From assembly GCF_900091495.1 (NCBI RefSeq), contig NZ_LT607413.1, positions 5,781,001 through 5,845,000 on the forward strand: 64,000 bases of DNA, read 5' to 3'. Of the stretch, positions 28,366-50,479 are shown one piece after another. This DNA is from Micromonospora echinospora (GTDB taxonomy: Bacteria; Actinomycetota; Actinomycetes; Mycobacteriales; Micromonosporaceae). The notes under the pieces were generated by a model. That model saw nothing but the letters and a program-made list of their open reading frames with translations, was not told the DNA's origin and did no database searches. The translations under genes and the position numbers were made by a program. Within the stretch, counting starts at the first letter, position 1, and each line of letters begins with the position of its first letter.

Positions 28366-29265
28366 ATGCCATCACCCACCACCATCCGTCCCCGTTCCCT
28401 CGTCCGTGCCGTGGCCGGGCTGACCACGGCCGTCCTCCTGGCCACCGGGGGTGTCCTGGCGGCGGCGTCCGGCGCGCAGGCCGCGGACAACCCGTACGAG
28501 CGCGGCCCCAACCCGACCACCGCCATCCTGGAGGCCAGCCGTGGCCCCTTCGCCACCGCCTCGCAGACCGTCTCCTCGCTGAGCGTCAGCGGCTTCGGCG
28601 GCGGGGTCATCTACTACCCGACCAGCACCAGCGAGGGCACCTTCGGCGCCATCGCCATCTCGCCCGGTTTCACCGCCTACTGGTCCAGCATCAGCTGGCT
28701 CGGGCCGCGACTGGCCTCGCACGGCTTCGTGGTCATCGGCATCGAGACCAACAGCACCCTCGACCAGCCGGACAGCCGTGGTCGGCAGTTGCTGGCCGCG
28801 CTCGACTACCTGGTCCAGCGCAGCTCCGTCCGGACCCGGATCGACGGCACCCGGCTCGCCGTGGCCGGACACTCGATGGGCGGCGGGGGCAGCCTCGAAG
28901 CCTCCGTGTCGCGCCCGTCGTTGCAGGCCGCGATTCCGCTCGCGCCCTGGAACACGACCAAGAGCTGGTCGAGCGTACGGGTTCCCACGCTGATCATCGG
29001 CGGCGAGTACGACACCGTCGCCCCGGTGTCGTCGCACTCGGAGCCGTTCTACAGCAGCATCCCGGCCGCGTCGGAGAAGGCGTACCTGGAGCTGAACGGG
29101 GAGAGCCACTTCTTCCCCCAGTCGGCCGACGCGCTGGTCGGCAAGCAGATGGTGAGTTGGCTGAAGCGGTTCGTCGACAACGACACCCGCTACGAGCCGT
29201 TCCTCTGCCCGGGCCCGAGCGGCCTGGACGTGGAGGAGTACCGCAACACCTGCCCCAGTTCCTGA
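28366..29265 (+). CDS. Secreted cutinase / PET-hydrolase-like polyesterase
   Basis: A 299-residue secreted alpha/beta hydrolase closely resembling Thermobifida cutinases (TfCut2 type). Signal peptide 1-39 ([14 protein letters not shown]). The triad is Ser170 in GHSMGG, Asp216 in GEYDTVAP and His248 in ESHFFPQ, each exactly 40 residues beyond Ser130/Asp176/His208 of TfCut2. Other family marks: [10 protein letters not shown] (oxyanion loop), [23 protein letters not shown], and a C-terminal Cys pair in FLCPGP and NTCPSS. It has the cutinase-type His before the nucleophile and Phe after the catalytic His, not the Trp/Ser of Ideonella PETase. Natural role: cutin or suberin breakdown; activity on polyethylene terephthalate is plausible but untested. 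GGGAG ribosome site. Confidence 0.92.
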
Positions 29266-29353
29266 TCCGTGATCGGGGCGCCCCGGACCGGCTCTGTCGG
29301 CGGGGCGCTCCGTCCGGTCCGGTGGTCTTCCGCTAGGTCGGGCGGAAGCCTAT

Positions 29354-29372
29354 ATTGCATCCATAGTGCAAT
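29354..29372. promoter_or_regulatory. Operator 1 of acyl-CoA island
   Basis: ATTGCATCCATAGTGCAAT, a palindrome 20 bases upstream of the first acyl-CoA dehydrogenase. In reverse complement its core is TGCACT-ATGG-ATGCA, the first of four sites fitting TRCACT-N4-RTGYA in this island. TATATT beside it may be the -10. Confidence 0.7.
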
Positions 29373-29391
29373 TACTTCCCGGAGGATCGGC

Positions 29392-30657
29392 ATGCCCGAC
29401 GACGACGCCGACCGGCTGCGCGGCCTGGTCGCCGAGTTCCTCCGGCGACACGATCCGGCCGGCGGCGCGACCGCGTTCCTCGGTGCCCGGTTCGACGCCG
29501 GACTGGCCTGGGTCCACCATCCGGTCGGGCTCGGCGGGCTGGGTCTGCCCCGCCGCCTCCAGCCGGTGCTCGACGAGGCGCTGGCCCGGGCCGGTGTGCC
29601 GGACCATCGCCCACGGCGCAACAGCATCGGTCTCGGTATGGCGGCTCCGACCGTGCTGCGGCACGGCACCCCGGCCCAGTGCCAGCGGTGGCTGCGGCCG
29701 CTCTGGACCGGCGAGGAGGTCTGGTGCCAGCTGTTCAGCGAACCGGACGCCGGCTCCGACCTCGCCGCCGTGACCACCCGTGCGGTGCGCGACGGCGACG
29801 ACTGGGTGGTCGACGGCCAGAAGGTGTGGACCTCGCTGGCCCACCGCGCGCGGTGGGGCCTCCTGCTCGCCCGCACCGACCCCGGGGTCGCCAAACACCG
29901 GGGGCTCACCTACCTGGTCTGTGACATGACCGCACCGGGGGTGCTGGTGCGGCCGCTGCGCCAGCTCACCGGCGAGGCGGAGTTCAACGAGGTCTTCCTC
30001 ACCGGCGTCCGGCTGCCGGACACGCTGCGCCTCGGGGCCGTCGGCGACGGCTGGCGGGTGGCCCGGACCACCCTGATGAACGAGCGGGTCGCGATCGGTG
30101 GGCGACCGCTGCCCCGCGAGGGGGGCATGATCGGCCTGCTGGCGCGCGCCTGGCGCGCGCGACCCGAGCTGCGCACACACGGCCTGCACGCCGACCTCCT
30201 ACGCGCCTGGGTGGAGGCCGAGGCCGCCCGGTTGACCGCCCTGCGGCTGCGCCAACAGCTCGCCGCCGGCGAGCCGGGGCCGGAGGGGTCGGCGGTGAAG
30301 CTCACCTTCGCCGAGCTGGCCCAGCGGATCAGCGCGTTGGAGCTGGACCTGCTCGGCGACGAGGGGCTGCGGTACGACGACTGGACGATGCGCCGTCCGG
30401 AGGAGCCGGACCTGCTCGGCCGCACCGCCGCGTACCGCTACCTGCGGGCCCGGGGAAACTCGATCGAGGGTGGGACCTCGGAGATCCTGCGCACCGTCAT
30501 CGCCGAGCGGGTCCTCGGCCTGCCGCCCGAGCCCCGCGTGGACCGACCGCCGTCGGAGTCCGGGCCGGACCGACCGCCGCCCGGGCCGAGGCCGGACCGA
30601 CCGCCGTCGGAGCCCGGGCCGGACCGACCGCCGGGCGAGCCCGGGGCGGACCGATGA
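29392..30657 (+). CDS. Acyl-CoA dehydrogenase, catalytic subunit of a pair
   Basis: A 421-residue FAD acyl-CoA dehydrogenase. Family motifs: the FAD-contact block FSEPDAGSDLAAVTTRAVRDGDDWVVDGQKVWTSLAH, NEVFLTGVRLPD, and the C-terminal GNSIEGGTSEILRTVIAERVLGLP carrying the Glu of heterotetrameric FadE enzymes. The last 38 residues are a proline/arginine repeat (DRPPSESGP, DRPPPGPRP, DRPPSEPGP, DRPPGEPGA), absent from the usual family. Its stop overlaps the next ACAD by ATGA, so the two subunits are probably made 1:1 as an alpha2beta2 enzyme. First gene after operator 1; GGAGG ribosome site. Confidence 0.92.
   Translation: MPDDDADRLRGLVAEFLRRHDPAGGATAFLGARFDAGLAWVHHPVGLGGLGLPRRLQPVLDEALARAGVPDHRPRRNSIGLGMAAPTVLRHGTPAQCQRWLRPLWTGEEVWCQLFSEPDAGSDLAAVTTRAVRDGDDWVVDGQKVWTSLAHRARWGLLLARTDPGVAKHRGLTYLVCDMTAPGVLVRPLRQLTGEAEFNEVFLTGVRLPDTLRLGAVGDGWRVARTTLMNERVAIGGRPLPREGGMIGLLARAWRARPELRTHGLHADLLRAWVEAEAARLTALRLRQQLAAGEPGPEGSAVKLTFAELAQRISALELDLLGDEGLRYDDWTMRRPEEPDLLGRTAAYRYLRARGNSIEGGTSEILRTVIAERVLGLPPEPRVDRPPSESGPDRPPPGPRPDRPPSEPGPDRPPGEPGADR
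30533..30657 (+). repeat. Proline-rich tandem repeat at ACAD C-terminus
   Basis: About four units of DRPPxExGP-type sequence, 9-11 codons each, built on ccggaccgaccgccg. It is in-frame and follows the complete ACAD domain; probably an unstructured tail. Confidence 0.7.
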
Positions 30658-31766
30658 CCGACCTGTGTTACGACGACGTCGAGGAGGCGCTCCGGGACAG
30701 CGTCCGGGCGCTGCTGACGACACACGCCCCGTGGCAGCGGACCCTGACCCGGGTGGACGGCGGCGAGGCGTACGACCCGGCGCTCTGGGCGCGGCTGGTC
30801 GGTGAGCTCGGGGTCGCCGGCCTGCCGGTGCCCGAGGAGCACGGCGGCGCGGGCGTCGGCTTCCGCGAGGTGGCGGTGGTGCTGGAGGAGTTGGGCCGGG
30901 CGGTCGCGCCGGTGCCGTTCCTGGGCAGCGCCGTGCTGGCCACCCGGGCGCTGCTCGCCTGTGGGGAGACCCGGCTGCTCGGGCCGCTCGCCGCCGGGCG
31001 GTGCGTCGCGACGCTGGTGGTTCCGTTCGGCACGTCCCCCGGAACACCTCCGGACCCGGTCGCGGTGTCCACCGGTCCGGCTCTCACCGGCCGGGTGGCC
31101 GGTGTCGTCGACGCGCTCCCGGCCGACGTGCTGTTGGTGCCGGCCGGAGACGGACTGTACGCCGTGGACGCCCGGGGACCGGGGGTGCGCCGGACCCCGG
31201 TGGTCTCCCTCGACGTCACCCGCCCGCTGGCCGACGTCGGGTTCGCCGACGCGCCGGCCCGACGGGTCGCCGCCGGCGCGACGGCCACCGGGGCGGTGAC
31301 CGACGCGCTGACCGCAGGCGCGGCGTTGCTCGCCTCGGAGCAGGTCGGCGTGGCCCAGCGCTGTCTCGACCTGGCGGTCGCGCACGTGCGGACCCGGCAC
31401 CAGTTCGGCCGTCCGGTCGGCTCGTTCCAGGCGGTCAAGCACCGGCTGGCCGACGTCTGGGTGGCGGTCTCCCAGGCCCGGGCGGTGGCCCGGTACGCCG
31501 CCGACTGCCTCGCCACCGGCGACCCGGACACCGCCCTGGCCGCGTCACTGGCCCAGGCGTACTGCGGGACGGTCGCGACGACCGCCGCCGAGGTCTGCGT
31601 GCAGGCGCACGGTGGCCTCGGGTTCACCTGGGAACATCCGGCGCACCTGTTGCTCAAGCGGGCGAGGAGCGCGGCGGTCGCCTTCGGCGCCGCCGACCGG
31701 CACCGGGCGGTCCTGACCGACCTGGCCGACCTGCCCGCGCCACCACCCGGTGCGCCCCGACCCTGA
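30654..31766 (+). CDS. Acyl-CoA dehydrogenase, partner subunit lacking catalytic Glu
   Basis: A 370-residue acyl-CoA dehydrogenase-like protein. The C-terminal half retains ACAD helices (LLASEQVGVAQRCLDLAVAHVRTRHQFGRPVGSFQAVKHRLADVW) and the motif QAHGGLGFTWEHPAHLLLKRA. This motif marks non-catalytic partner subunits of actinobacterial alpha2beta2 FadE pairs such as ChsE1/ChsE2. The canonical Glu loop is absent. The middle domain is short and poor in FAD contacts. Translationally coupled to the previous gene (ATGA). The complex would oxidise an acyl-CoA with a bulky or short chain; the substrate is not deducible. Confidence 0.9.
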   Translation: MTDLCYDDVEEALRDSVRALLTTHAPWQRTLTRVDGGEAYDPALWARLVGELGVAGLPVPEEHGGAGVGFREVAVVLEELGRAVAPVPFLGSAVLATRALLACGETRLLGPLAAGRCVATLVVPFGTSPGTPPDPVAVSTGPALTGRVAGVVDALPADVLLVPAGDGLYAVDARGPGVRRTPVVSLDVTRPLADVGFADAPARRVAAGATATGAVTDALTAGAALLASEQVGVAQRCLDLAVAHVRTRHQFGRPVGSFQAVKHRLADVWVAVSQARAVARYAADCLATGDPDTALAASLAQAYCGTVATTAAEVCVQAHGGLGFTWEHPAHLLLKRARSAAVAFGAADRHRAVLTDLADLPAPPPGAPRP

Positions 31767-31833
31767 CCTCCGTCGGCGGACGGCCGTCGGCCGTTGGCCG
31801 TTTCCGGTCCGGAAATACGACGTATCGAAGGTG

Positions 31834-31870
31834 TTGACGGGGAGCGCGAGAAAAGTACACTCCCCGTGTA
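31834..31870 (+). promoter_or_regulatory. Promoter and operator 2 of acyl-CoA island (importer operon)
   Basis: TTGACG (31834-31839), 16 bases, TACACT (31856-31861) form a promoter 32 bases before the ABC ATPase gene. The -10 is itself the left half of TACACT-CCCC-GTGTA (31856-31870), which fits the shared TRCACT-N4-RTGYA operator, so binding would block polymerase directly. Confidence 0.7.
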
Positions 31871-31901
31871 AATAGTCTCCCGCCGACCCGAGGGATGGGT
31901 G

Positions 31902-32687
31902 ATGGAGCAAGGGCTCGCACTGCACCAGGTCAGGGTGCGCTTCGGCGGCCTCACCGCCCTCGACGACGTCTCGCTCCGGGTGCCCGCCACCGGTGTCCTC
32001 GGCGTGATCGGCCCGAACGGGGCCGGCAAGACCACCCTCTTCAACGTGGTCTGCGGATTCGTGACGCCGGAGTCGGGTTCGCTGACGCTCGACGGTCGGC
32101 CGCTGCGTCCGCGACCGCACCGGCTGAACCGGCTCGGCATCGCCCGCACGCTCCAGGGCACCGGACTCTTCCCCGGGCTCACCGTGCTGGAGAACGTGAT
32201 GACCGGCGCCACGCACACCGCCCGCGCCGGCTTCCTGTCGGCCCTGTTCGGCCTGCCACGCAGCGACCGCGACGAGCGCCGGCTGCGGCGGCACGCCCTC
32301 GCCGTCCTCGACGAGCTGGGCATCGCCGGGCACGCCGACGCCGCGCCGGCGACCCTGCCCTTCGCCGTACGGCAGCGGGTCGCGCTGGCCCGCGCGCTCG
32401 CCGCCCGACCCCGGCTGCTCCTGCTCGACGAACCCGCCGGGGGCCTCGGCGCCGAGGACATCGACGACCTGGCGGAGCTGGTCCGGGGACTGCCCCGGCG
32501 CGACCCGGACCCCTGCGCGGTTCTGCTGGTCGAGCACCACATGGACCTGGTGATGGCGGTCTGCGACGAGGTGACCGTGCTCGACTTCGGCAAGGTCATC
32601 GCCAGCGGCACCCCCGAGCAGATCCGCGACGACCCGGCCGTCACCGACGCGTACCTCGGCGCGGCCGTCGACGGATCCGCGACATGA
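31902..32687 (+). CDS. Branched-chain-type ABC importer ATPase (LivG-like)
   Basis: A 261-residue ATPase of the HAAT family. Walker A GPNGAGKTTLFN (near 38), Q-loop region IARTLQGTGLFPGLTVLENV, Walker B RLLLLDEPAGGL and the H-loop in VEHHMDLV are intact. The signature is the degenerate LPFAVRQRVALARAL, as LivG proteins normally have LPYG-QR. It pairs with the next gene as the ATPase heterodimer. ATG at 31902 with GAGGGATGGGTG upstream (a GTG one codon earlier is possible). First gene of a five-gene importer operon; its stop overlaps the next start (ATGA). Confidence 0.92.
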   Translation: MEQGLALHQVRVRFGGLTALDDVSLRVPATGVLGVIGPNGAGKTTLFNVVCGFVTPESGSLTLDGRPLRPRPHRLNRLGIARTLQGTGLFPGLTVLENVMTGATHTARAGFLSALFGLPRSDRDERRLRRHALAVLDELGIAGHADAAPATLPFAVRQRVALARALAARPRLLLLDEPAGGLGAEDIDDLAELVRGLPRRDPDPCAVLLVEHHMDLVMAVCDEVTVLDFGKVIASGTPEQIRDDPAVTDAYLGAAVDGSAT

Positions 32688-33406
32688 CCACCGACGCCCT
32701 GCTCGCGGTCGATGGTCTGGTCGCCGGCTACGGAGCCGCGCCGGTGCTGCACGCGGTCGACCTCACGGTGGCGCCGGGCACCATCGTCGCCGTGGTCGGC
32801 GCCAACGGCGCCGGCAAGACCACCCTGCTGCGCGCCCTCTCCGGCATGCTCCGCCCGAGCGACGGTCGGATCACCCTGGCCGGGGAGGACCTGCGGGGCG
32901 TGCCGGTGGAGCAGCTCGTCCGGCGCGGCATGGCGCACGTGCCGGAGGGACGGGGCGTGGTCGGCGAGCTGACCGTGGACGAGAACCTGCGCCTCGGCGG
33001 GCTGTGGCGCCGGGACCGCGCCGACGCCGCCCGAGCCCTCGACGAGGTCTACCAGCTCTTCCCGCCCCTGGCGCGGCGCCGTCGGCACCTCGGCCATCAG
33101 CTCTCCGGCGGCGAACGGCAGATGCTCGCCCTCGGCCGGGCGCTCGTCGGCCGTCCCCGGCTGCTCCTGCTGGACGAGCCGTCCCTCGGGCTGGCGCCCC
33201 GGGTGGTCGCCCAGACCATGGCGCTGCTGCGGCGCCTCCGCGACGACACCGGGCTGACCGTGCTCCTGGTCGAGCAGAACGTGCGCAGCGCGCTCCGGAT
33301 CGCCGACCAGGGGGTGGTGATGGCCCTCGGCCGGGTCGTCACCACCGCGCCGGCCGCCCGACTCCGGGACGACGCCGAGCTGCGCCACGCCTACCTCGGA
33401 TTCTGA
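32684..33406 (+). CDS. Branched-chain-type ABC importer ATPase (LivF-like)
   Basis: A 240-residue HAAT ATPase. Walker A GANGAGKTTLLR, the LivF-typical RRGMAHVPEGRGVVGELTVDENL, signature LSGGERQMLALGRAL, Walker B RLLLLDEPSLGLAP and H-loop-equivalent LLVEQNVRSAL are all present. Start ATG at 32684 overlaps the LivG-like stop by four bases. Together they drive the LivH/LivM-like channel. Confidence 0.93.
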   Translation: MTTDALLAVDGLVAGYGAAPVLHAVDLTVAPGTIVAVVGANGAGKTTLLRALSGMLRPSDGRITLAGEDLRGVPVEQLVRRGMAHVPEGRGVVGELTVDENLRLGGLWRRDRADAARALDEVYQLFPPLARRRRHLGHQLSGGERQMLALGRALVGRPRLLLLDEPSLGLAPRVVAQTMALLRRLRDDTGLTVLLVEQNVRSALRIADQGVVMALGRVVTTAPAARLRDDAELRHAYLGF

Positions 33407-33435
33407 CCCACCCGTGTCCCCCGGAGGGAGGACCG

Positions 33436-34314
33436 TTGGACCGCTTCCTCTTCCTCACCCTCGACGGCCTGTCGAGGGGCGCGGTCTACGCCGCGTTCGC
33501 GCTGTCCCTGGTGCTGATCTGGCGGGCCGCCCGGATCGTCAACTTCGCCCAGGGAGCGATGGCGGTGGCCGCCGCCTACGTGGCCTACAGCGTCTCCACC
33601 GCCACCGGCTCCTACTGGCTTGGCTTCCTGGCCGCGCTGGTCGCCGGACTGCTCCTCGGCGCGCTCGTCGACGTGGCCGTCATGCGCTTCGTCGACCACC
33701 GCTCCCCGCTCAACCCGGTGATCGTCGCGCTGGGGCTGGTCCTGCTGATCCAGGCCGTCCTCGGCATGCTCTACGGCAACGAGTTCCGCCCGGTGGGGAC
33801 GCCGTTCGACCGGGGCGCGCTGACCGTCGGCGGGCTCGCCCTGCTCTCGCCGTACGACCTGTTCGTGTTCCTGGCGGTCGCGGTGGTGGTCGTCGCGCTG
33901 GCCTGGACCTTCACCCGCACCGCGGTGGGCCTGCGGATGCGGGCGGCGGCCTTCGCCCCCGAGGTCTCCCGCCTGCTCGGGGTGAACGTCGGCGGCATGC
34001 TGACCCTCGGCTGGGCGCTCGCCTCCGGGGTCGGCGCCCTGGCCGGCATGTTGGTCATCCCGACCGAGCTGGGCCTGCATCCGCACGCGATGGACCTGGT
34101 CTTCGTCTCGGCGTTCACCGCCGCCGTGGTCGGCGGGCTGGACAGTCCGCCCGGGGCGGTCGTCGGTGGTCTCGTCGTCGGGCTGCTGCTGTCGTACGTC
34201 AGCGGCTACGCCGGTGGCGACGTCACCTCCCTCGCGGTGCTCGGGTTGCTGCTCGCGGTGCTGCTGGTCCGTCCCGGCGGTCTCTTCGCCCCGGTCACCG
34301 CGAGGCGGGTGTGA
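33436..34314 (+). CDS. Branched-chain-type ABC permease (LivH-like)
   Basis: A 292-residue membrane permease with about eight hydrophobic helices. The LivH signatures are GAVYAAFALSLVLIWRAARIVNFAQGAMA near the N-terminus and the coupling-loop region RTAVGLRMRAAAFAPEVSRLLGVNV. TTG start at 33436 preceded by an excellent GGAGGGAGG; the longer upstream frame is the shadow of the ATPase gene. Its stop overlaps the next GTG start (GTGA). Confidence 0.92.
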   Translation: MDRFLFLTLDGLSRGAVYAAFALSLVLIWRAARIVNFAQGAMAVAAAYVAYSVSTATGSYWLGFLAALVAGLLLGALVDVAVMRFVDHRSPLNPVIVALGLVLLIQAVLGMLYGNEFRPVGTPFDRGALTVGGLALLSPYDLFVFLAVAVVVVALAWTFTRTAVGLRMRAAAFAPEVSRLLGVNVGGMLTLGWALASGVGALAGMLVIPTELGLHPHAMDLVFVSAFTAAVVGGLDSPPGAVVGGLVVGLLLSYVSGYAGGDVTSLAVLGLLLAVLLVRPGGLFAPVTARRV

Positions 34315-35423
34315 GCGCCACCCGGGCGGCGGCCCCACCGACGCGCCCGCCGGCCGGTCCGGGCGTCCGGCCGTCCGACGGGCCCCGTGGCTCGACCCTG
34401 CTGCGTCACCTGACCTGGACCGTGGTCGGCGCGCTGGCCCTGCTGGTCGTCAGCTACCAGCTGGAACCGTTCCGCAGCTTCCAGCTCGCCACCGTGGCCG
34501 CCTACCTCTGCGCGACCGCCGGGCTGACCGTGCTCACCGGACTCAACGGGCAGCTCTCGCTCGGACACGGCGCGCTGATGGCCACCGGCGCCTACACCGT
34601 CGCCCTCTGCCAGACCGCCTTTCTCGACCGGGGGATCACCGGCGGCTGGGTGCTCCCGGTCTCGCTGGGGGCGGCGATCCTGACCACGGTCGCGGTCGGC
34701 GCCGTCGTCGGGGTGGCGGCGGCCCGGCTGCGGGGCCCGTACCTGGCCGGGGTCACCCTGGCCGTCGCGGTCGTGGTGCCGGCGCTGACCGTCACCTTCG
34801 ACGGCGTGTTCAACGGCGAGCAGGGGCTGTCCGTCCCGGTCGACCCGCCGCCGGCGGCGCTCGGCCTCGACTTCCCCTACGAACGGTGGCAGCTCTGGGT
34901 CGCCGGGTCGGCCAGCCTGCTCGCCCTGCTGCTGCTCGGCAACCTGGTGCGCAGCCGGTTCGGCCGGACGTTCCGGGCGGTCCGCGACGACGAGGTGGCG
35001 GCCCGGCTGGCCGGCATCCACGTCGCGCGTACCCAGGTCCTCGCCTTCGTGGTCAGCGCGGCCTGCGCCGGGCTCGGCGGGGCCCTGCTCGCGGTGCTGG
35101 CCCAGAGCGCGTCACCCGGCGCCTTCTCCCTGACGCTCTCGCTCTTCCTGCTGATGGCCGTGGTCGTCGGTGGTCTGGGCAGCCTCGCCGGCGCGTTCTG
35201 GGGCGCTGTCCTGCTGGTCGCCCTGCCGGACCTGACACACACCCTCACCGAGCGACTCGCCCTCTCGCCGGCCATGGCCCAGCGGCTGGAGGGCAACCTT
35301 CCGCTGGCGATCTTCGGGATCACGTTGGTCGTCGTCATGATCGCCGCGCCCGGCGGCGTGCAGGGTCTCCTCTCCCGCCTGGTCCGGCCGCTGCTCGCCC
35401 GGTTGCCCTCGCGGCGGTCCTGA
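34311..35423 (+). CDS. Branched-chain-type ABC permease (LivM-like)
   Basis: A 370-residue permease. After a charged N-terminus come about ten helices with LivM markers: TGLNGQLSLGHGALMATGAYT and the coupling loop SRFGRTFRAVRDDEVAARLAGIHVARTQVLAFVVSA. It pairs with the LivH-like protein. GTG at 34311 overlaps the preceding stop. Confidence 0.92.
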   Translation: MSATRAAAPPTRPPAGPGVRPSDGPRGSTLLRHLTWTVVGALALLVVSYQLEPFRSFQLATVAAYLCATAGLTVLTGLNGQLSLGHGALMATGAYTVALCQTAFLDRGITGGWVLPVSLGAAILTTVAVGAVVGVAAARLRGPYLAGVTLAVAVVVPALTVTFDGVFNGEQGLSVPVDPPPAALGLDFPYERWQLWVAGSASLLALLLLGNLVRSRFGRTFRAVRDDEVAARLAGIHVARTQVLAFVVSAACAGLGGALLAVLAQSASPGAFSLTLSLFLLMAVVVGGLGSLAGAFWGAVLLVALPDLTHTLTERLALSPAMAQRLEGNLPLAIFGITLVVVMIAAPGGVQGLLSRLVRPLLARLPSRRS

Positions 35424-35488
35424 ACGCCGTCCCGGCGGCTGACGCCCCACCCCACCCGTCCCCCCGACAAGGAAAGGCCGGTGTCCTG

Positions 35489-36769
35489 ATGCGACGCCTC
35501 ACCCGATGCGGTCTCGCGATCGCCACCTCCATGAGCCTGCTCGTCGCCACCGGATGCGGCGACGGCGACTCCGACTCCGGCCGCGCGTCGGTGCCCGGCG
35601 TCACCGACACCGAGATCGTGGTCGGCACCCACATGCCCCTGACCGGGCCCGCCGCGGCCGGCTACTCCAAGATCGCCCCAGCCACGAAGGCGTACTTCGA
35701 CTACGTCAACGCCAACGGCGGCGTGCACGGCCGGAAGATCACCTACAAGGTGATGGACGACGGCTACAACCCGGCGAACACCCAGCAGGTGGTCCGCCAG
35801 CTGGTCCTCCAGGACCGGGTCTTCGCCCTCCTCAACGGGCTCGGCACGCCCACCCACACCGGGGTGCTCGACTTCCTCAAGAGCAACCGGGTGCCCGACC
35901 TCTTCGTCGCCTCCGGCAGCCGGAGCTGGGACCAGCCGGACAAGTATCCGGGCACGTTCGGGTTCAACCCCGACTACACCGTGGAGGGCAAGATCTTGGC
36001 CCACCACGTGAAGACCGAGCTGCCCGGCCGGAAGGTCTGCTTCCTCGGCCAGGACGACGACTTCGGCCGGGACAGCCTGGTCGGCGTGGAGAAGGTCCTC
36101 GGCGCGGAGGCGGTCGTCTCCCGGCAGACGTACGTCACCAGCAACCCCAACGTCGCACCCCAGGTGGGCGCGTTCAAGGCGGCCGGCTGCCAGGTCGTCA
36201 TCCTCGCCACCGTGCCCGGGTTCACCGCGCTGGCCGTCGGCACCGCCAAGCGGCTCGGGTTCGCCCCGCAGTGGCTGGTCTCCAACGTCGGCGGGGACCA
36301 TCCGACCCTGGCCCAGCAACTCGGTGCCGCCACGCCGCTGCTGGAGGGGATGATCGGCGCCAACTACCTGCCGATGCAGCACGACACCGCGAACCCGTGG
36401 ATCCAACTCTTCAGCAAGGTGAACAAGGAGCACAACGGGGATGCGCCGTTCGACGGCAACACCGTCTACGGGATGGCGGTCGGCTATCTCTTCGTGCAGG
36501 CGCTCGCCGCCGCCGGGAAGGACCTCACCCGCGACTCGCTGCTCGCCGCCGTCGGCCGGGGCGGCTTCGCGGGCCCGGGGCTGGCCCCGCTGCGCTTCTC
36601 CGACACCGACCACTCCGGCTACGGCGGTCTGCGGCTGAACCGGGTCAGCGAGGGAACGCAGAGCTACTTCGGTCCGACGTACGAGACCGACGAGGGCGAC
36701 GGTCCGGTCAGGGAGTACACCGCGCCGCCGGTCACGCCCCCGGCCAACGGTGTGCCGACGGGCTCCTGA
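35489..36769 (+). CDS. HAAT substrate-binding lipoprotein (LivK-like)
   Basis: A 426-residue periplasmic-binding-type lipoprotein. Signal peptide with lipobox LVATGC (Cys at residue 22), then the family-typical opening TDTEIVVGTHMPLTGPAAAGYSKIAPATKAYFDYVNANGGVHGRKI, and later FAPQWLVSNVGGDHP. HAAT binding proteins near acyl-CoA genes commonly bind carboxylic acids, aromatic acids or sterol fragments instead of amino acids. It probably captures the substrate that the island degrades. AAGGAAAGG ribosome site; last gene of the importer operon, 65 bases after LivM. Confidence 0.92.
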   Translation: MRRLTRCGLAIATSMSLLVATGCGDGDSDSGRASVPGVTDTEIVVGTHMPLTGPAAAGYSKIAPATKAYFDYVNANGGVHGRKITYKVMDDGYNPANTQQVVRQLVLQDRVFALLNGLGTPTHTGVLDFLKSNRVPDLFVASGSRSWDQPDKYPGTFGFNPDYTVEGKILAHHVKTELPGRKVCFLGQDDDFGRDSLVGVEKVLGAEAVVSRQTYVTSNPNVAPQVGAFKAAGCQVVILATVPGFTALAVGTAKRLGFAPQWLVSNVGGDHPTLAQQLGAATPLLEGMIGANYLPMQHDTANPWIQLFSKVNKEHNGDAPFDGNTVYGMAVGYLFVQALAAAGKDLTRDSLLAAVGRGGFAGPGLAPLRFSDTDHSGYGGLRLNRVSEGTQSYFGPTYETDEGDGPVREYTAPPVTPPANGVPTGS

Positions 36770-36775
36770 CGGGCG

Positions 36776-36821
36776 TTGACGTGCGATCCGTCCCGCTCCT
36801 AGTATCTGCACTATGAATGCA
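36776..36821 (+). promoter_or_regulatory. Leaderless promoter and operator 3 of acyl-CoA island
   Basis: TTGACG (36776-36781), 18 bases, TAGTAT (36800-36805), then the ATG at 36813 seven bases later with no ribosome site: a leaderless transcript. The operator TGCACT-ATGA-ATGCA (36807-36821) covers the initiation point and start codon. Confidence 0.75.
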
Positions 36822-37580
36822 AATTCAGGGTCGCTCGCGGGGCGGGTCGCCGTCGTCACCGGAGCCAGCCGTGGCATCGGGCTGGCCGTCGCCCGGCGGC
36901 TGGTCGCCGACGGGGCCCGGGTGGGCGTCACCGCCCGGCACCCGGAGGCGCTGGCCGAGGCGGTCGCCGCCCTCGGCGGGCCGGCGCACGCCGTGGGGGT
37001 GGCCGGCCGGGCCGACGACCCGGCGCACCGCGCCGAGACCGTCCGCCGGGTCACCGAGACGTTCGGGCCGGTCGACATCCTGGTCAACAACGTCGGCATC
37101 AACCCCGTCCACGGGCCGCTGGCCACCCTCGACCTGGCCGCCGCGCGCAAGATCCTCGACGTCAACCTGCTCGGCACCCTCGGCTGGACGCAGGAGGTCT
37201 GCGCCGCCGGGCTGACCGCGCGCGGCGGCTGCGTCGTCAACGTCTCCTCGATCGCCGGCCACACCCCGTCGCCCGGCATCGCCTTCTACGGCGTGAGCAA
37301 GGCCGCCGTCGACCACCTCACCGCCTGCCTCGCCGTCGAGCTCGCCCCGACGGTACGCGTCAACGCGGTCGCCCCGGCCGTGGTGCGGACCCGGTTCGCC
37401 GCGGCCCTCTACGCGGACCGGGAGGACGAGGTCGCCGGGGCGTACCCGCTGGGACGGCTCGGGGAGCCCGGCGACGTCGCCGCGGCGGTCGCCTTCCTCG
37501 CCTCCGACGAGGCGGCCTGGATCACCGGGCAGACGCTCGTCCTCGACGGGGGACTCACCCTCACCGGTCGGCCGGCCTGA
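36813..37580 (+). CDS. SDR-family oxidoreductase 1
   Basis: A 255-residue short-chain dehydrogenase. Cofactor motif VVTGASRGIG (14-23), VNNVG (91-95), Ser145/146 in NVSSIAG and Tyr159-x3-Lys163 in YGVSK. The C-terminus has the classical DEAAWITGQTLVLDGG. It probably interconverts a keto and a hydroxy group on an acyl-CoA using NAD(P). First gene of a four-gene operon under operator 3; the stop overlaps the next start by one base (TGATG). Confidence 0.92.
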   Translation: MNANSGSLAGRVAVVTGASRGIGLAVARRLVADGARVGVTARHPEALAEAVAALGGPAHAVGVAGRADDPAHRAETVRRVTETFGPVDILVNNVGINPVHGPLATLDLAAARKILDVNLLGTLGWTQEVCAAGLTARGGCVVNVSSIAGHTPSPGIAFYGVSKAAVDHLTACLAVELAPTVRVNAVAPAVVRTRFAAALYADREDEVAGAYPLGRLGEPGDVAAAVAFLASDEAAWITGQTLVLDGGLTLTGRPA

Positions 37581-38368
37581 TGACCGGCCTGACGCTCGCC
37601 GAGGCGGGCGTGGTGGTGACCGGAGCGGGGTCCGGCATCGGCGCGGCGCTGGCCACCCGGTTCGCCGCCGCCGGCGCGCGGGTGGTGGTCAACGACGTCG
37701 ACGCCCCGGCGGCCCGGGCGGTCGCGGCCCGGATCGGCGGGCACGCCCACCCCGCCGACGCGGCCGATCCCGCCGGGGTGACCGCGCTGGTGGACGCCGC
37801 CCGGGACCGGTTCGGCGCGGTCGACCTGTTCTGCGCCAACGCCGGGGTGGCGTCCGGCGGCGGCCCCGACGCCTCCGACGAGACGTGGGCCCGCGCCTGG
37901 CGGGTGAACGTGATGTCCCACGTGTACGCCGCCCGCGCGCTGCTGCCGCACTGGCTCGCCGCCGGGCGCGGCCGGATGCTGGTCACCGCCTCCGCCGCCG
38001 GCCTGCTCACCCTGCTCGGCAACGCCCCGTACTCGGTGACCAAGCACGCGGCCGTGGGCTTCGCCGAGTGGCTGCGGGCCAGTTACGCCCACCGGGGCGT
38101 CACCGTCCAGGCCCTCTGCCCCCAGGGGGTCCGCACCCCGATGCTGGCCGACGCCGACGGGCTGAGCGCTGCCCTGCTGGACGCCACGGCGGTCACGCCC
38201 GAGCAGGTGGCCGACTGCGTCGTCGAGGCGCTGGCCGACGACCGTTTCCTGGTGCTGCCGCACCCGCAGGTCGCCGGCTGGTACGCCCGGCGTGCCGACG
38301 ACCCGGACCGCTGGCTGCGGGCGATGAACCGGACCCAGCGCGACGCGGAGCGCGAACGGCATGGCTGA
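37580..38368 (+). CDS. SDR-family oxidoreductase 2
   Basis: A 262-residue short-chain dehydrogenase: VVTGAGSGIG (12-21), CANAG (85-89), Ser138 in VTASAAG, Tyr151-x3-Lys155 in YSVTK. The C-terminal tail (LPHPQVAGWYARRADDPDRWLRAMNRTQRD) is typical of SDRs found beside APH-like kinases and ACADs. Possibly the counterpart of LvaD, which reduces 4-oxo to 4-hydroxyacyl-CoA in levulinate catabolism. Overlaps its neighbours on both sides. Confidence 0.9.
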   Translation: MTGLTLAEAGVVVTGAGSGIGAALATRFAAAGARVVVNDVDAPAARAVAARIGGHAHPADAADPAGVTALVDAARDRFGAVDLFCANAGVASGGGPDASDETWARAWRVNVMSHVYAARALLPHWLAAGRGRMLVTASAAGLLTLLGNAPYSVTKHAAVGFAEWLRASYAHRGVTVQALCPQGVRTPMLADADGLSAALLDATAVTPEQVADCVVEALADDRFLVLPHPQVAGWYARRADDPDRWLRAMNRTQRDAERERHG

Positions 38369-39343
38369 GTTGCCCGGCCTGGACCTGCACCGGCTCGCCG
38401 ATCACCTGGACCGGGCCGTGCCCGGTCTGCTCGCCGGGAAGCTGCGCGGCGAGCTGCTGACCGGCGGACGGTCCAACCTGACCTACGCGGTGACCGACGG
38501 CCGGTCCCGGTGGGTGGTGCGCCGCCCACCCCTGGGCCACGTGCTGGCGACCGCGCACGACATGGGCCGCGAGTACCGGGTGATGCGGGCCCTCGCCCGG
38601 ACGCCCGTTCCGGTGCCCGGGACGGTGTACCTCTGCCCGGACCCGGCGGTCCTCGGGGCGCCCTTCTACCTGATGCGCCACGTGCCGGGACGGGCCTACC
38701 GGGAGCCGGCGGAGCTGGTGGGATGGGGGCCGGTGGGCGTCCGGACGCTGTTCCTGTCCCTGGTGGACGTCCTCGCCGCGCTGCACGCGGTGGATCCGGC
38801 CGGGGTGGGCCTGGCCGACTTCGGGCGCCCGGAGGGCTTCACCGGTCGGCAGGTGCGGCGCTGGAAGCGCCAGCTCGACGCGTCCCGCAGCCGGGACCTG
38901 CCCGGTGTCGAGGAGTTGTACGACCGGCTCGCGGCGGCTGTCCCCGAGAGCCGGACCGGGGTGCTCCTGCACGGCGACTTCCGCCTGGACAACGTCCTCG
39001 TCGGCGGCGACCGTACGGTGCGGGCGGTCCTCGACTGGGAGATGTCCACCCTGGGGGACCCCCTCACCGACCTGGCGCTCTTCCTGGTCTACGCCGGCCG
39101 GACCGACCTGCCCGGCCGCCCCGGGGACGACGAGCTCGCCGCCCGGTACGCCGACCGCAGCGGCCGGCGGGTGGACGACCTCGACTGGTATCTCGCCTTC
39201 GCCGCGTTCAAGCTCGCGGTGATCCTCGAGGGCGTGCACTACCGCTGGGTGCGCGGGCAGACCGTGGGCAGCGGGTTCGGCGACGTGGGCGCGCGGGTGC
39301 CACCGCTGGTCGCCCAGGGTCTGACCAGGATACGGAGGCGCTG

Positions 39344-39344
<1 letters not shown>
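38361..39344 (+). CDS. APH-like phosphotransferase (ACAD10/11-kinase, LvaA-like)
   Basis: A 327-residue aminoglycoside-phosphotransferase-fold kinase. Markers: GELLTGGRSNLTYAV, the Brenner motif HGDFRLDN (204-211) and the metal site LDWEMSTLGDPLTDLALFL. These match the kinase domains of human ACAD10/ACAD11 and LvaA of Pseudomonas putida, which phosphorylate the 4-hydroxy group of 4-hydroxyacyl-CoA. It overlaps the preceding SDR by eight bases, and the following dehydrogenase starts at its stop, so kinase and dehydrogenase are co-produced as the split form of ACAD11. An antibiotic-resistance role is unlikely in this context. Confidence 0.88.
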
Positions 39345-40579
<1,235 letters not shown>

Positions 40580-40618
40580 ACTCGCGGGCGACCGGCAGTG
40601 AGGGAGGGAGCGGGCGGG

Positions 40619-41230
40619 ATGGGCAGGGCCGAGGCACCGGGGCGGGTCGACGGGCGCACCGCCCGGGCCGAACGCACCCGGGCGGCCATCGTCGAGGCGC
40701 ACCTGGCGCTCATCTCCGAGGGCGACCTGCGGCCGACCGGGGAACGCATCGCCGAGCGGGCCGGCATCTCGCTGCGGACCCTCTGGACCAACTTCAAGGA
40801 CATGGAGACCCTCTTCGAAGCCAGCGGTGAAGAGGTGCTCCGCCAGCAGGACGCCGCCTACCGGCCGATTCCGGCCACCCTGCCGCTGGCCAAACGGGTC
40901 GACGCGTTCTGCCGGCAGCGGGCTCGGCTGCTCCAGCTCATCGCACCGTCCGCCCGGGCCGCGCAGATGCGCGAGCCGGTCTCCGAGCAACTGCACCGCA
41001 ACCGGCTCAAGCACGTCGACCGGGTCCGCGACGAGGTCGAGCACCTCTTCGCCGCCGAGTTGGCGCAGGCCGGGCCGGGCCGGGACCAGTTGGTGCACGC
41101 CCTGGTGGCGGCGAGCATGTGGCCGGCCTGGTCGATGCTGCGCGACGGTCTCGGGCTGGGCGTCGACCAGGCCCGTGCGGTGATGGCCCGTACGGTGGCC
41201 GCCCTGCTGGCCGACCCTGCCGCCCGCTGA
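40619..41230 (+). CDS. TetR-family regulator of acyl-CoA island
   Basis: A TetR protein of about 203 residues. HTH ERTRAAIVEAHLALISEGDL, TGERIAERAGISLRTLWTNFKDMETLF (about 20-65). Ligand domain rich in R/L helices (RQRARLLQLIAPSARAAQMREP, HALVAASMWPAWSMLRDGLG), similar to TetR proteins that sense acyl-CoAs. Lying just downstream of the catabolic operon, it is the best candidate to bind the four TRCACT-N4-RTGYA sites; that link is inference. ATG at 40619 follows GGGAGGGAG; a GTG at 40598 is possible. Confidence 0.88.
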   Translation: MGRAEAPGRVDGRTARAERTRAAIVEAHLALISEGDLRPTGERIAERAGISLRTLWTNFKDMETLFEASGEEVLRQQDAAYRPIPATLPLAKRVDAFCRQRARLLQLIAPSARAAQMREPVSEQLHRNRLKHVDRVRDEVEHLFAAELAQAGPGRDQLVHALVAASMWPAWSMLRDGLGLGVDQARAVMARTVAALLADPAAR

Positions 41231-41250
41231 CCGTCACCTCTTTCCATCCC

Positions 41251-41266
41251 GTTACCGATAGGTAAC
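41251..41266. promoter_or_regulatory. GTTACC-GATA-GGTAAC palindrome upstream of LuxR gene
   Basis: A perfect palindrome ten bases before the large LuxR gene, unlike the island operator. It is possibly an autoregulatory site of that gene or one for another factor. Confidence 0.45.
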
Positions 41267-41275
41267 ACTAAATAC

Positions 41276-44017
41276 ATGGTTACTGCATCGTCAGTGCATA
41301 TAACCGTGCTGCGGGGCCGGGACGACGAGCGCCGGGCGATCCGCGACCTGCTCGACGGCGCCGGTGGGGGAGCGCTGCTGCTCCAGGGCGAGCCGGGGTC
41401 GGGTCGGAGCGCCCTGGTCGGCTACGCCCACCGGCACGCCGCTGACCGGACGATCCTCGCCGGAGCCGGGCTCACCGACGAGGCGGCGCTGCCCTACGCC
41501 GGGCTGCAACGCCTTCTCGACCCGGTGCGGGACCGGGCCGGCGCGCTTCCCGTCGCCCAACGACGTGTGCTGCGGCGTGCCCTGGCCGGTGCGGGCTGCC
41601 CCGCCGGCCAGCGGCTGACCCTGTCGATGGCCGTGCTCGGGCTGCTCGCCGTGACCGCCCGGGACCGTCCCCTGCTCTGCACCATGGACGACGTCGACCT
41701 CGGAGACCGACCGACCGCCGAGGCACTGGCCTTCGTGGCGCGCCGCCTGTGCCACCTGCCGGTCGTCGTCCTCCTCACCGGAGCCGTCGACACCGCTCCC
41801 GGCGGGATCCCCACCCGCCGGCTCCGTCCCCTCGACGAGCACGACAGCCGCGCCGTCCTCACCGACCGGCTGCCGGTGCCCGCCTCCGACCCGGTCGTCA
41901 CCACCCTTGGCGCGGTCGCCGCCGGCAACCCGCAGGCCCTCGTGGACCTGGCCGAAGCCCTGACTCCCGCCCAGTGCCGGGGAGAGGAAAACCTGCCCAC
42001 CACGCCACCGCCCGACGGCGCCCTGGGCCGGGACTACCGGGCCCGGCTGGACCGGTTGACCGACGACGCGCGGCACCTGCTGCTGCTCGCCGCCCTCGAC
42101 CACGACGTGGACGCGGCGACGCTCGTCCGGGCCGCGCGCGCCACCGGGACGGCGATCGAGGCACTCGCCCCGGCCGAGGTCGCCGGCCTGGTCCGCGTCG
42201 AGGCGCACGGCGTGACGTTCCCGCAACCCCTGGTCCGGGCGATGGTCGTGGCCACGGCGCCCCTTGCCGCGCGCCGCGCCGCGCACCTGGTGCTCGCCGC
42301 CCTGCTCGACGACGGTGACCACCGGCTCCGCCGGGCCCTGCACCTCGCCGCCGCCGCCGAGGGCCGCGATCCCGCCCTGGCGACCGAACTGGAGGCGGCG
42401 GCCCGCGACGACGGCGACCCGGACGCCCGCTCGACGGCACTGCACCGCGCCGCCGAGCTCAGCGTCGACCCGGCCCGTGCCGCCGCCCGACTGGTGGCAG
42501 CCGCCCACCACGCCTGGTCGGCGGGGCGCCCGCACCGGGCCCGGCTGCTCGTCCAGCACCTGCCCACCGGCCTGCCGGGGCCGGCGGTGACCGGCCGGGT
42601 GGAGCTGTTGCGCGGCGAGATGGAACTGCGCTGCGGGCGGACCCCGGCCGCGCTGACGGCCTTGCTCGCTGCCGCGGACGCGTGGGCCGGCACCGCTCCG
42701 GACCTGGCCCTGGAGGCACTGCTGCGGGCTGGCGAGGCGGTCTGCTTCGCCGGTGACCAGTACCGGTACGCCGACGTGGCACGACGGGCACGGGCACTGT
42801 GCCAGACCGGGGCGTCACCCCGGACGGAACTGGTGACCGCGCACCTCGCCGGTGTGGCGGCGACCCTGCGGGGCGACCACGAGGCGGCCGGGCCGACGTT
42901 GCGCCGGGCTGTCGTCCTCGGCGACCGTCTCACCGGGCCGGACCTCACGCCGACCGCCCTGACCGGCGCGGCGGTGGCCGCCCTGCTGGTGGCCGAGGAC
43001 GGCCCGGCGCACCGGCTCGCCGACCGGGCGGTGGCACTGGCCCGCGTGCGGAGGGAAGTCTGCGACCTGCCCCGGGCGCTGGAGCTGCGGGCGGTCGCCG
43101 AGTACTGGCTGGGTCGGCACGAGACGGCGGCGGAGACCTCCCGGGAGGGGCTGCGCGCCGCCCGGGACGCCGGCCAGACCACCTGGGCCGGGGTCCACCG
43201 GGGCATGCTGGCGGTGCTGGCCGCCGTCCGCGCCGACCGGGCGAGCAGTCTGCGGCTGATCCGGGAGCTCGGAGAGGAACCGGCGCCCGGCAGCCGTCCC
43301 GACGCCCTGGCCCGCTGGGCCCTCGCGGTGCTCGACCTGCTCGACGGGCGGCCCGAGGACGCCGCCGCCCGGCTCGCGGCCCTGGCCTGCCCCGGCACCG
43401 GACGCGGGCAGGTCACGGTGCAGGTGATGGCCACGCCGTACCTGGTGGAGGCCGCCGCCGCGTCGGTGCACCGGCCGGCGGCCGTCGCCGCGCTCGCCGT
43501 CTTCGACCGCTGGGCCCACAGCACGGCCAGCCCGTCCCGCCGGGCCCTCTCCGCGCGGTGTCACGCGCTGCTCGCCCCCCGGGGCAGCCAGGCGGCGGAG
43601 GAGGGCTTCCGCGCCGCGCTGCGGTGGCACCCGCCGGGAGCCGGCGCGTTCGAGCGGGCCCGTACCGAATTCCTCTTCGGCCGGGAACTGCGCCGCAGTC
43701 GTCGCCCCCGCGACGCCCGCCGGTATCTCCACGACGCCTGCGAGACCTTCACCCGGCTGGGCGTGGCTGCCTGGGCCGAGCAGGCGGCGGCGGAGCTGCG
43801 GGCCGCCGGGGAATCGGTCGGCGGTCCGGACCGGTCGGCGGCCCAGCTGCTGACCGGCCAGCAGCTCCGGGTCGCGCAGCTGGTCGCGGAGGGTGCCACC
43901 AACCGGGAGGTCGCCGACCGGATGTTCCTCTCCACCCGCACGGTCGACCATCACCTGCGCAACATCTTCCACCGGCTCGGCATCCGTTCCCGCACCCAGT
44001 TGGCCCGGGTGCTCTGA
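41276..44017 (+). CDS. Large LuxR-family (LAL) transcriptional regulator
   Basis: A 913-residue LAL-type regulator. N-terminal AAA-like ATPase with Walker A GEPGSGRS (38-45; the usual Lys is Arg44) and Walker B-like LLCTMDDVDLGD. The long middle is helical with TPR-like repeats. The C-terminal LuxR HTH (about 855-913) reads LTGQQLRVAQLVAEGATNRE, VADRMFLSTRTVDHHLRNIFHRLGIRSRTQLA. LALs activate catabolic or antibiotic pathways on sensing sugars or effectors. The K-to-R change may impair ATP hydrolysis. ATG at 41276, with an internal GTG at 41294 as an alternative; operator 4 lies inside the first codons. Confidence 0.92.
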   Translation: MVTASSVHITVLRGRDDERRAIRDLLDGAGGGALLLQGEPGSGRSALVGYAHRHAADRTILAGAGLTDEAALPYAGLQRLLDPVRDRAGALPVAQRRVLRRALAGAGCPAGQRLTLSMAVLGLLAVTARDRPLLCTMDDVDLGDRPTAEALAFVARRLCHLPVVVLLTGAVDTAPGGIPTRRLRPLDEHDSRAVLTDRLPVPASDPVVTTLGAVAAGNPQALVDLAEALTPAQCRGEENLPTTPPPDGALGRDYRARLDRLTDDARHLLLLAALDHDVDAATLVRAARATGTAIEALAPAEVAGLVRVEAHGVTFPQPLVRAMVVATAPLAARRAAHLVLAALLDDGDHRLRRALHLAAAAEGRDPALATELEAAARDDGDPDARSTALHRAAELSVDPARAAARLVAAAHHAWSAGRPHRARLLVQHLPTGLPGPAVTGRVELLRGEMELRCGRTPAALTALLAAADAWAGTAPDLALEALLRAGEAVCFAGDQYRYADVARRARALCQTGASPRTELVTAHLAGVAATLRGDHEAAGPTLRRAVVLGDRLTGPDLTPTALTGAAVAALLVAEDGPAHRLADRAVALARVRREVCDLPRALELRAVAEYWLGRHETAAETSREGLRAARDAGQTTWAGVHRGMLAVLAAVRADRASSLRLIRELGEEPAPGSRPDALARWALAVLDLLDGRPEDAAARLAALACPGTGRGQVTVQVMATPYLVEAAAASVHRPAAVAALAVFDRWAHSTASPSRRALSARCHALLAPRGSQAAEEGFRAALRWHPPGAGAFERARTEFLFGRELRRSRRPRDARRYLHDACETFTRLGVAAWAEQAAAELRAAGESVGGPDRSAAQLLTGQQLRVAQLVAEGATNREVADRMFLSTRTVDHHLRNIFHRLGIRSRTQLARVL
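41284..41298. promoter_or_regulatory. Operator 4 of acyl-CoA island
   Basis: TGCATCGTCAGTGCA, in reverse complement TGCACT-GACG-ATGCA, fits TRCACT-N4-RTGYA. It lies just inside the LuxR coding start, as operator 3 overlaps a start codon. Confidence 0.6.
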
Positions 44018-44860: not shown

Positions 44861-44905
44861 GATGTCTCCCAGTCGACCGCCTGACACGGTGTGAGGGTCA
44901 AGGGC

Positions 44906-49018: not shown

Positions 49019-50433
<1,415 letters not shown>

Positions 50434-50453
50434 GGCGCCCCTCACGTACGTCG

Positions 50454-50476: not shown

Positions 50477-50479
50477 ACT

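What the first reader, a model, noticed from the sequence alone, without database searches (positions are those of the whole stretch)
29354..41298. Shared operator TRCACT-N4-RTGYA defines a regulon across the acyl-CoA island
Four 15 bp sites (29356-29370, 31856-31870, 36807-36821, 41284-41298) lie at the starts of the ACAD pair, importer operon, SDR-kinase-ACAD operon and LuxR gene. Each fits the pattern with 8 fixed and 3 two-fold positions; by simple uniform counting fewer than one such match is expected in 64 kb. Site 2 contains a -10 and site 3 covers a leaderless start, as expected for repression. The TetR at 40619 is the likely binder.
Basis: partly seen in the sequence, partly recalled or inferred. 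Interest (0 to 1): 0.72.

Follow-up and report, generated by a model that had tools for sequence, protein, structure and literature searches.

The report
Repressor switch for polyester/acid utilisation genes
A short DNA address, repeated at the start of four neighbouring gene groups in a soil actinobacterium, is conserved across relatives together with one repressor gene, and it probably ties an importer, fatty-acid-type enzymes and the activator of a PET-hydrolase-like enzyme into one switch.

Summary
The pattern occurs exactly four times in the window (0.04 expected) and six times in the 7.78 Mb genome. The conserved motif is a palindrome, TRCA-N7-TGYA: in 78 loci fetched with the TetR gene, 187 copies have the 7-bp spacing against 0-36 at each other spacing 0-24. 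It sits at every ACAD1 (15/15), livG (57/57) and luxR (47/47) start found there. Across 354 Micromonosporaceae genomes the importer form of the site and TetR occur together (193 both, 36 TetR only, 5 site only, 120 neither).

TetR is the best-supported binder: other local genes, LuxR included, are missing from many operator-bearing loci, and the luxR gene beside a PETase/cutinase gene carries the operator in 29 of 30 loci of TetR genomes, also where TetR is about 58-250 kb away, but in 0 of 11 loci of TetR-less genomes. That pair resembles Streptomyces lipAR. I read this as a TetR-repressed regulon: ACAD pair, importer, SDR/ACAD11-like operon ending in tetR, and a LipR-like activator. Binding, ligand and substrate are untested.

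The parts
29356..29370 (-). Operator 1, TGCACTATGGATGCA, shares one base with the -10-like TATATT (29351-29356) before ACAD1
   Evidence: 15 of 15 ACAD1 starts in the 78 related loci carry the motif
31856..31870 (+). Operator 2, TACACTCCCCGTGTA; its TACACT is the likely -10 of the importer promoter (TTGACG at 31834-31839, 16 bp spacer)
   Evidence: 57 of 57 livG starts carry the motif and 57 of 57 livG-type sites have TTG[AC]C 15-19 bp upstream
36807..36821 (+). Operator 3, TGCACTATGAATGCA; covers the probably leaderless ATG (36813) of SDR1; -10 TAGTAT 36800-36805, -35 TTGACG 36776-36781
   Evidence: 22 of 23 SDR1-start sites have ATG or GTG at operator bases 7-9; TANNNT box 7 nt upstream in 31 of 32 sites chosen for that start codon
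41284..41298 (-). Operator 4, within codons 3-8 of luxR
   Evidence: 47 of 47 luxR starts carry the motif
41273..41287 (.). Overlapping near-operator (TACATGGTTACTGCA), giving three half-sites 11 bp apart; contains the luxR start codon
   Evidence: part of the relatives have a full second site here
29392..30657 (+). ACAD1, like one subunit of a heteromeric acyl-CoA dehydrogenase
   Evidence: nearest solved Tcur3483 6wy9 E 3.8e-35
30654..31766 (+). ACAD2, like the partner subunit
   Evidence: Tcur3481 6wy8 E 1.4e-31; IpdE2 model 190 bits, below its cut-off of 450
31902..32687 (+). LivG-type ATPase
32684..33406 (+). LivF-type ATPase
33436..34314 (+). LivH-type permease (start approximate)
34311..35423 (+). 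LivM-type permease
35489..36769 (+). Substrate-binding protein (PF13458); N-terminus looks like a lipoprotein signal (by eye)
36813..37580 (+). SDR1 dehydrogenase/reductase
37580..38368 (+). SDR2
38361..39344 (+). APH-fold kinase, like the kinase half of ACAD11
   Evidence: PF01636; 9o56 E 2.4e-53, ACAD11 8v3v E 7e-44
39344..40579 (+). ACAD3, like the dehydrogenase half of ACAD11
   Evidence: 2wbi E 7.9e-123
40619..41230 (+). TetR-family regulator, proposed binder; last gene of the operon that starts at operator 3
   Evidence: conserved HTH; predicted TetR-like fold, pLDDT 92.5
41276..44017 (+). Large LuxR-family (AAA plus GerE) regulator, LipR-like
   Evidence: next to a PETase gene in relatives
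28366..29265 (+). PETase/cutinase-type hydrolase (probable start 28366; signal peptide by eye)
   Evidence: PF12740 E 1.9e-123; 7yko E 5.6e-127, lipase 1jfr E 1.2e-120 (that 1jfr is from S. exfoliatus is recalled)
28280..28297 (+). Element CGGTGATTTTGCCGATGC upstream of the PETase gene, candidate LuxR target; separate from the TetR operator
   Evidence: single match within 1 mismatch in the genome; in 38 of 42 PETase-bearing related loci

Best explanation
The TetR-family protein encoded at 40619-41230 binds, as a dimer, the palindrome TRCA-N7-TGYA and represses four transcription units: the ACAD pair, the Liv-type importer, the SDR1-SDR2-kinase-ACAD3 operon (which ends in tetR itself, so it autoregulates) and the LuxR-family gene. 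The operators overlap or directly follow -10 boxes, or cover start codons, so binding would block initiation or the first steps of elongation. An unidentified small molecule, probably the imported acid or its CoA ester, releases TetR. The LuxR-family protein then probably activates the neighbouring PETase/cutinase gene, as LipR does for lipA in Streptomyces. Shown by comparison: the operator, its conservation, its link to TetR presence, its placement. Inferred: binding, repression, ligand, and the LuxR-to-hydrolase step.
For: Spacing scan 187 at N7 versus 0-36 at each other spacing 0-24. At spacing 7, 173 of 187 hits lie at gene starts of the cluster; at spacings 5, 6 and 8-12, 3 of 119 do. 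Family survey 193/36/5/120 of 354, in the window's genus 97/7/0/56. The 30 site loci fetched (all of one other genus, g4) have the site directly upstream of LivG. Of the 36 TetR-only genomes I fetched 16 loci, and 14 hold the broader motif at a cluster gene start. In operator-bearing loci LuxR is found in 48 of 69 and 6 of 15, a second window TetR in 18 of 69 and 0 of 15, LivG in 57 of 69 and 9 of 15. PETase-luxR loci: operator in 29 of 30 with TetR, 0 of 11 without. SDR1 is reduced to frames of 22-106 aa in 10 loci whose operator and -10 box persist. In other families, TetR is divergent from Liv-type genes with TRCA-N7-TGYA between them in 5 of 10 intergenic regions inspected, and a 38% identical TetR has two sites before it.
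Against: No binding or expression data. The loci were fetched by TetR, so TetR being in all of them (69/69, 15/15) is by construction; only the genome-wide survey is free of this. TetR-less PETase-luxR pairs come from one genus (10 of 11) plus G316, so they are not independent, and in those 10 the LuxR aligns only from residue 425 or later, so its start is extrapolated. Seven Dactylosporangium loci carry a TetR 56-60% identical with nearly the same recognition helix but no TRCA-N7-TGYA and no cluster. Nine of 78 loci have no site: these seven, L066 (begins at tetR) and L096. Of the 17 loci, L170 (ends near LivG) and L174 have none; 19 further TetR-only genomes, besides the window's own, were not examined. 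Of ten distant intergenic regions five have only an imperfect site (L241, L246, L247, L248, L250), and over the whole 19 distant loci spacing 7 is not enriched.
Confidence: 0.87

Rival explanations
1. The LuxR-family protein binds the palindromes, autoregulating itself and activating the other operons.
For: One site is in its own gene; LuxR-type proteins can bind inverted repeats (recalled).
Against: Operators persist in loci where LuxR is not found (LuxR in 48 of 69 and 6 of 15 operator-bearing loci; in some of these genomes it lies elsewhere). The PETase-LuxR pair has no site in the 11 TetR-less loci examined. Sites on -10 boxes and start codons suit repression.
Confidence: 0.05
2. Another regulator of the genome (for example the second TetR at 50483-51220 or the MerR at 44039-44887) binds the sites.
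For: Both lie near the island.
Against: MerR is in 0 of 69 and 0 of 15, and the second TetR in 18 of 69 and 0 of 15, operator-bearing loci. A regulator encoded far away is not excluded but would have to follow TetR presence across 354 genomes.
Confidence: 0.05
3. Conservation reflects promoter or coding constraint, not an operator.
For: TACACT is a -10 box; part of sites 3 and 4 is coding.
Against: Both halves and the exact 7-bp spacing are kept at unlike places: over a -10, just after a -10, over a start codon, and in early codons. At the mutase-like gene, where TACACT is only a -10 box, the second half is kept in 14 of 30 genomes.
Confidence: 0.02
4. TetR regulates only the importer and itself; sites 1 and 4 are minor or accidental.
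For: In many loci with a TetR of roughly 60-70% identity only the importer site lies within 10 kb.
Against: In several of those genomes the luxR site exists at a distant PETase-luxR locus; ACAD1 15 of 15.
Confidence: 0.03

Closest known systems
TetR-family local repressors of catabolic regulons (KstR and the like)
   Same: TetR-type fold, several operators, acyl-CoA dehydrogenases and transport under them; predicted autoregulation
   Different: KstR model 21.5 bits against a cut-off of 280; operator TRCA-N7-TGYA differs from the KstR operator as I recall it (TNNAACNNGTTNNA); different gene set
Streptomyces lipA-lipR, LuxR-family activator of a secreted lipase (passages of the review PMC12134079 seen; the primary papers are not held)
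   Same: The hydrolase resembles the solved lipase 1jfr; a large LuxR-family gene sits next to it in relatives; a conserved element lies upstream of the hydrolase gene
   Different: In the window the two genes are about 12 kb apart, with ACADs, importer, SDR/kinase/ACAD and TetR between them; the LuxR gene carries the operator
ACAD10/ACAD11 and the Pseudomonas lva operon, 4-hydroxyacyl-CoA phosphorylation and elimination (passages of PMC12440821 and PMC11342911 seen)
   Same: Adjacent kinase and ACAD genes that match the two halves of ACAD11
   Different: Embedded with a Liv-type importer and a second ACAD pair under a shared operator; the lva regulator LvaR is, as recalled, of another type; substrate untested

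Membership tests
TetR-family repressor | TetR-type HTH and all-helical fold | tested here: met
   PF00440 22.2 bits, just under the 24 cut-off; AlphaFold2 model pLDDT 92.5; the best Foldseek matches are TetR-type regulators, TM about 0.4-0.7 among the 50 listed, only 2 with E <= 0.001
TetR-family repressor | Palindromic operator at its own operon and its targets | tested here: met
   by sequence and position only
TetR-family repressor | Binds the operator and is released by a ligand | not testable with these tools
   needs protein
KstR | Match above the curated cut-off of the KstR model | tested here: not met
   21.5 bits versus 280
lipAR-type pair | Hydrolase of the 1jfr lipase family | tested here: met
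   E 1.2e-120
lipAR-type pair | Contiguous luxR-family gene | tested here: inconclusive
   not contiguous in the window; adjacent in relatives
lipAR-type pair | Regulator activates the hydrolase gene | not testable with these tools
   a conserved element was found, its binder is unknown
ACAD11 / lva type 4-hydroxyacyl-CoA pathway | Kinase and ACAD both of the ACAD11 type | tested here: met
   no direct comparison with LvaA or LvaC was run
ACAD11 / lva type 4-hydroxyacyl-CoA pathway | Phosphorylation and elimination on 4-hydroxyacyl-CoA | not testable with these tools
   needs assay

The most novel reading that the evidence does not exclude
A two-tier switch for natural polyester use, spread through Micromonosporaceae. 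TetR senses a monomer (or its CoA ester), derepresses a dedicated importer and hydroxyacyl-CoA enzymes, and also derepresses a LipR-like activator, which turns on a secreted PETase/cutinase through the element GGTGATTTYRCCGATGC. The TetR operator has been added to an older hydrolase-activator pair that in other genera runs without it.
Probability: 0.45. Interest if true: 0.72.

Novelty: new member of a known kind. Interest (0 to 1): 0.55.

Why it matters
It gives an operator, a likely repressor and a likely physiological setting to a regulon whose TetR is in 229 of 354 Micromonosporaceae genomes, with natural controls (unlinked and TetR-less copies of one target). If the PETase link holds, it is a handle on how bacteria naturally control a PET-hydrolase-family enzyme, and a possible monomer-responsive sensor. 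My searches of the open library listed no paper whose title or abstract start describes this regulon; subscription journals are largely not held.

Tried and rejected
Mutase-like gene as a distant target (exact site at genome 3565011; the name is my reading of the sequence, no family search was run). All 30 fetched upstream regions keep the promoter region, but the full TRCA-N7-TGYA is there in 13 of 27 TetR-bearing and 1 of 3 TetR-less genomes (a first look had recovered only 8 of 30). Unlike the four island sites it is not constant, so I do not count it, but I cannot exclude it.

Genome site 810965: 68 bp before an ATG of a frame in L001. Conservation not tested.

Operator before Dactylosporangium tetR: no convincing palindrome.

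Broad pattern TRCAYYNNNRRTGYA genome-wide: too noisy to localise sites; within the genus the mean count is 5.3 with TetR >= 82% identical (n=82), 2.8 with a 60-70% TetR (n=22), 2.1 without TetR (n=56).

TetR homologues elsewhere in the class: 23 of 394 genomes at E <= 1e-25, two of them of the window's own genus; regions of 19 of the other 21 were taken.

Plasmid search with the importer promoter: no match.

G256, the one exception: its LuxR aligns only from residue 312, the 5' part being absent next to the PETase gene.

For one search the handles and counts were copied by hand into the script; the totals agree with the tools' tallies (229 and 198).
Full report
OBSERVATION. The pattern TRCACT-N4-RTGYA has exactly four matches in the window, at the stated coordinates; 0.04 are expected and none of 100 shuffles reached four. 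The whole genome (7,775,486 bases, one contig) has six matches, four of them within these 12 kb; the pattern read backwards gives 12. With two mismatches the window count equals chance, 23 versus 25.6.

GENES. and the corrected frames give: ACAD1-ACAD2; LivG, LivF, LivH, LivM and a binding protein; SDR1-SDR2-kinase-ACAD3-TetR; a 913-residue LuxR-family protein. The long ORFs over the importer are wrong-frame; the livGF, livHM and SBP queries used those frames, and later calls used the corrected ones. Kinase and ACAD3 match the two halves of ACAD11 (8v3v E 7e-44, 2wbi E 7.9e-123). ACAD1 and ACAD2 match the Tcur3483/Tcur3481 pair. The nearest relatives of TetR that carry a source name are Micromonospora proteins, 98% identical.

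THE TRUE MOTIF. In 78 loci found with TetR, TRCA-Nk-TGYA occurs 187 times at k=7 and 0-36 times at each other k from 0 to 24. Of the 187, 173 lie at the start of ACAD1, LivG, SDR1, SDR2, TetR or LuxR homologues; at k=5, 6 and 8-12, 3 of 119 do. Starts carrying it: ACAD1 15/15, LivG 57/57, LuxR 47/47, SDR1 23/29, SDR2 2/8, TetR itself 3/76. By eye, several of the SDR and tetR misses lie inside operons headed by a site; I did not test this for each. Seven of the 14 remaining sites stand before decayed SDR1 remnants.

PLACEMENT. livG-type sites: 57 of 57 have TTG[AC]C 15-19 bp before TACACT, so the operator would cover the -10. SDR1-type: of 23 sites at SDR1 starts, taken without regard to the codon, 22 have ATG or GTG at bases 7-9 (the other is L095). 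Among 32 sites chosen for such a codon, 31 have a TANNNT box 7 nt upstream (the other is L092), so a leaderless start inside the operator is likely. In 10 of these loci (L043, L045, L047, L053, L055, L056, L058, L063, L069, L073) the frame from that start is only 22-106 aa, yet operator and -10 box persist, as expected if tetR downstream still needs them. luxR sites lie in the first codons: codons 2-10 end in A/T at 56-89% versus 4-12% (33% in L071) in the rest of the gene; these genes were picked by a pattern containing two TGCA half-sites, so part of the excess is by construction.

WHO BINDS. Family survey of 354 genomes: TetR at E <= 1e-20 in 229, the importer form TACACTNNNRGTGTA in 198; both 193, TetR only 36, site only 5, neither 120; within the genus 97, 7, 0, 56. 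The window's own genome is TetR-only because one central base differs. I fetched 17 loci, 16 TetR-only and one control, G090. Fifteen hold TRCA-N7-TGYA, each with at least one copy at a cluster gene start, for example TACATCGGGAGTGTA at LivG or TGCACTCGCAATGCA before ACAD1; L170 (G201, the contig ends near LivG) and L174 (G343) hold none. The 30 site loci fetched are all of genus g4 and all have the site next to LivG. In operator-bearing loci, genes other than TetR come and go (LuxR 48/69 and 6/15, LivG 57/69 and 9/15, ACAD1 23/69 and 7/15); TetR is in all of them by construction. In 27 aligned TetR proteins down to 56% identity, 17 residues of the recognition region are invariant (I44 A45 R47 A48 G49 S51 L52 R53 L55 W56 T57 N58 F59 K60 D61 M62 E63).

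THE LUXR TEST. The gene before the island (28366-29265) is a PETase/cutinase-type hydrolase. It accompanies the cluster in 42 of 114 loci, always with LuxR, on the same strand as TetR, and 38 of the 42 have the element upstream, which is single-copy in the window's genome. The shorter form GGTGATTTYRCCGATGC is in 137 of 354 genomes, not always by a PETase gene (L270, L271, L293, L296, L306). I took 53 loci around it: 14, 19 and 20, chosen for genomes where it lies away from TetR or TetR is absent, plus other genera. TetR-bearing genomes: 41 loci, 30 with PETase and LuxR together, 29 of these with an operator within 2.5 kb of the PETase gene and within 140 bp of the projected LuxR start. TetR-less genomes: 12 loci, 11 with the pair, 0 with the operator. 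The exception, G256, lacks the 5' part of LuxR. From the coordinates, the pair is about 58-68 kb from TetR in G151, G157, G176, G234, G272, G289 and G293, about 250 kb in G223, and on another contig in G158; in all nine the operator is at the LuxR start. Limits: 10 of 11 TetR-less pairs come from genus g16, where LuxR aligns only from residue 425 or later, so its start there is extrapolated.

BEYOND THE FAMILY. In the class, 21 genomes outside the family have a TetR homologue; 19 loci were taken. In ten intergenic regions between TetR and a divergent Liv-type operon, TRCA-N7-TGYA is present in five (L239, L242, L243, L244, L245; L243 and L244 are near-identical) and imperfect in five; a 38% identical TetR (L257) has two sites before it. 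Over the whole 19 loci spacing 7 is not enriched (9 hits; other spacings 0-9), so this rests on position only.

MECHANISM. Shown by comparison: a conserved palindrome at four operon starts, tied to TetR presence and placed for repression. Inferred: TetR binds it, an acid or CoA ester releases it, and the LuxR-family protein activates the PETase gene. The last step rests on Streptomyces lipAR, where the LuxR-family LipR activates the lipAR operon from sequences upstream of -35 (passages of PMC12134079; its primary papers are not held). In the window the island lies between the hydrolase gene and the luxR gene, which are neighbours in relatives where the pair is away from TetR.

KNOWN OR NEW. 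A TetR repressor with a multi-operon regulon is a known kind. I found no description of this regulator, operator and gene set in the library searched. The nearest functional analogues are lipAR and the lva/ACAD11 pathway (passages of PMC12440821 and PMC11342911).

Noticed in passing
window 28280-28297: Conserved element CGGTGATTTTGCCGATGC, an imperfect palindrome, upstream of the PETase/cutinase gene; single-copy in the genome; its 17-bp core is in 137 of 354 family genomes, including some without TetR. Candidate LipR-like site.
   Followed up: partly
window 28366-29265: PETase/cutinase-type hydrolase just upstream of the island, syntenic in 42 of 114 related loci, in each of them with the LuxR gene.
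   Followed up: partly
window 41240-41300: A second palindrome, TTACC-GATA-GGTAA, lies just upstream of the luxR start (seen by eye).
   Followed up: no
window 49018-52395: A second TetR gene (50483-51220) beside an aldehyde dehydrogenase and a divergent ACAD; perhaps a separate small regulon.
   Followed up: no
window 16645-19880: Two adjacent genes (GH64 beta-1,3-glucanase; protein with an alpha-lytic protease prodomain) both end in a ricin-type lectin domain and share matching short stretches at equal spacing.
   Followed up: no
L043, L045, L047, L053, L055, L056, L058, L063, L069, L073: The SDR1 frame is cut to 22-106 aa while operator, -10 box and start codon remain.
   Followed up: yes
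window 41273-41298: Three half-sites 11 bp apart at the luxR start, so two overlapping operators share a half-site; how dimers would share it is unexplained.
   Followed up: partly
L002 1501-1515 (genome 3565011): TRCA-N7-TGYA before a mutase-like gene, kept in 13 of 27 TetR-bearing and 1 of 3 TetR-less genomes; its status is open.
   Followed up: partly
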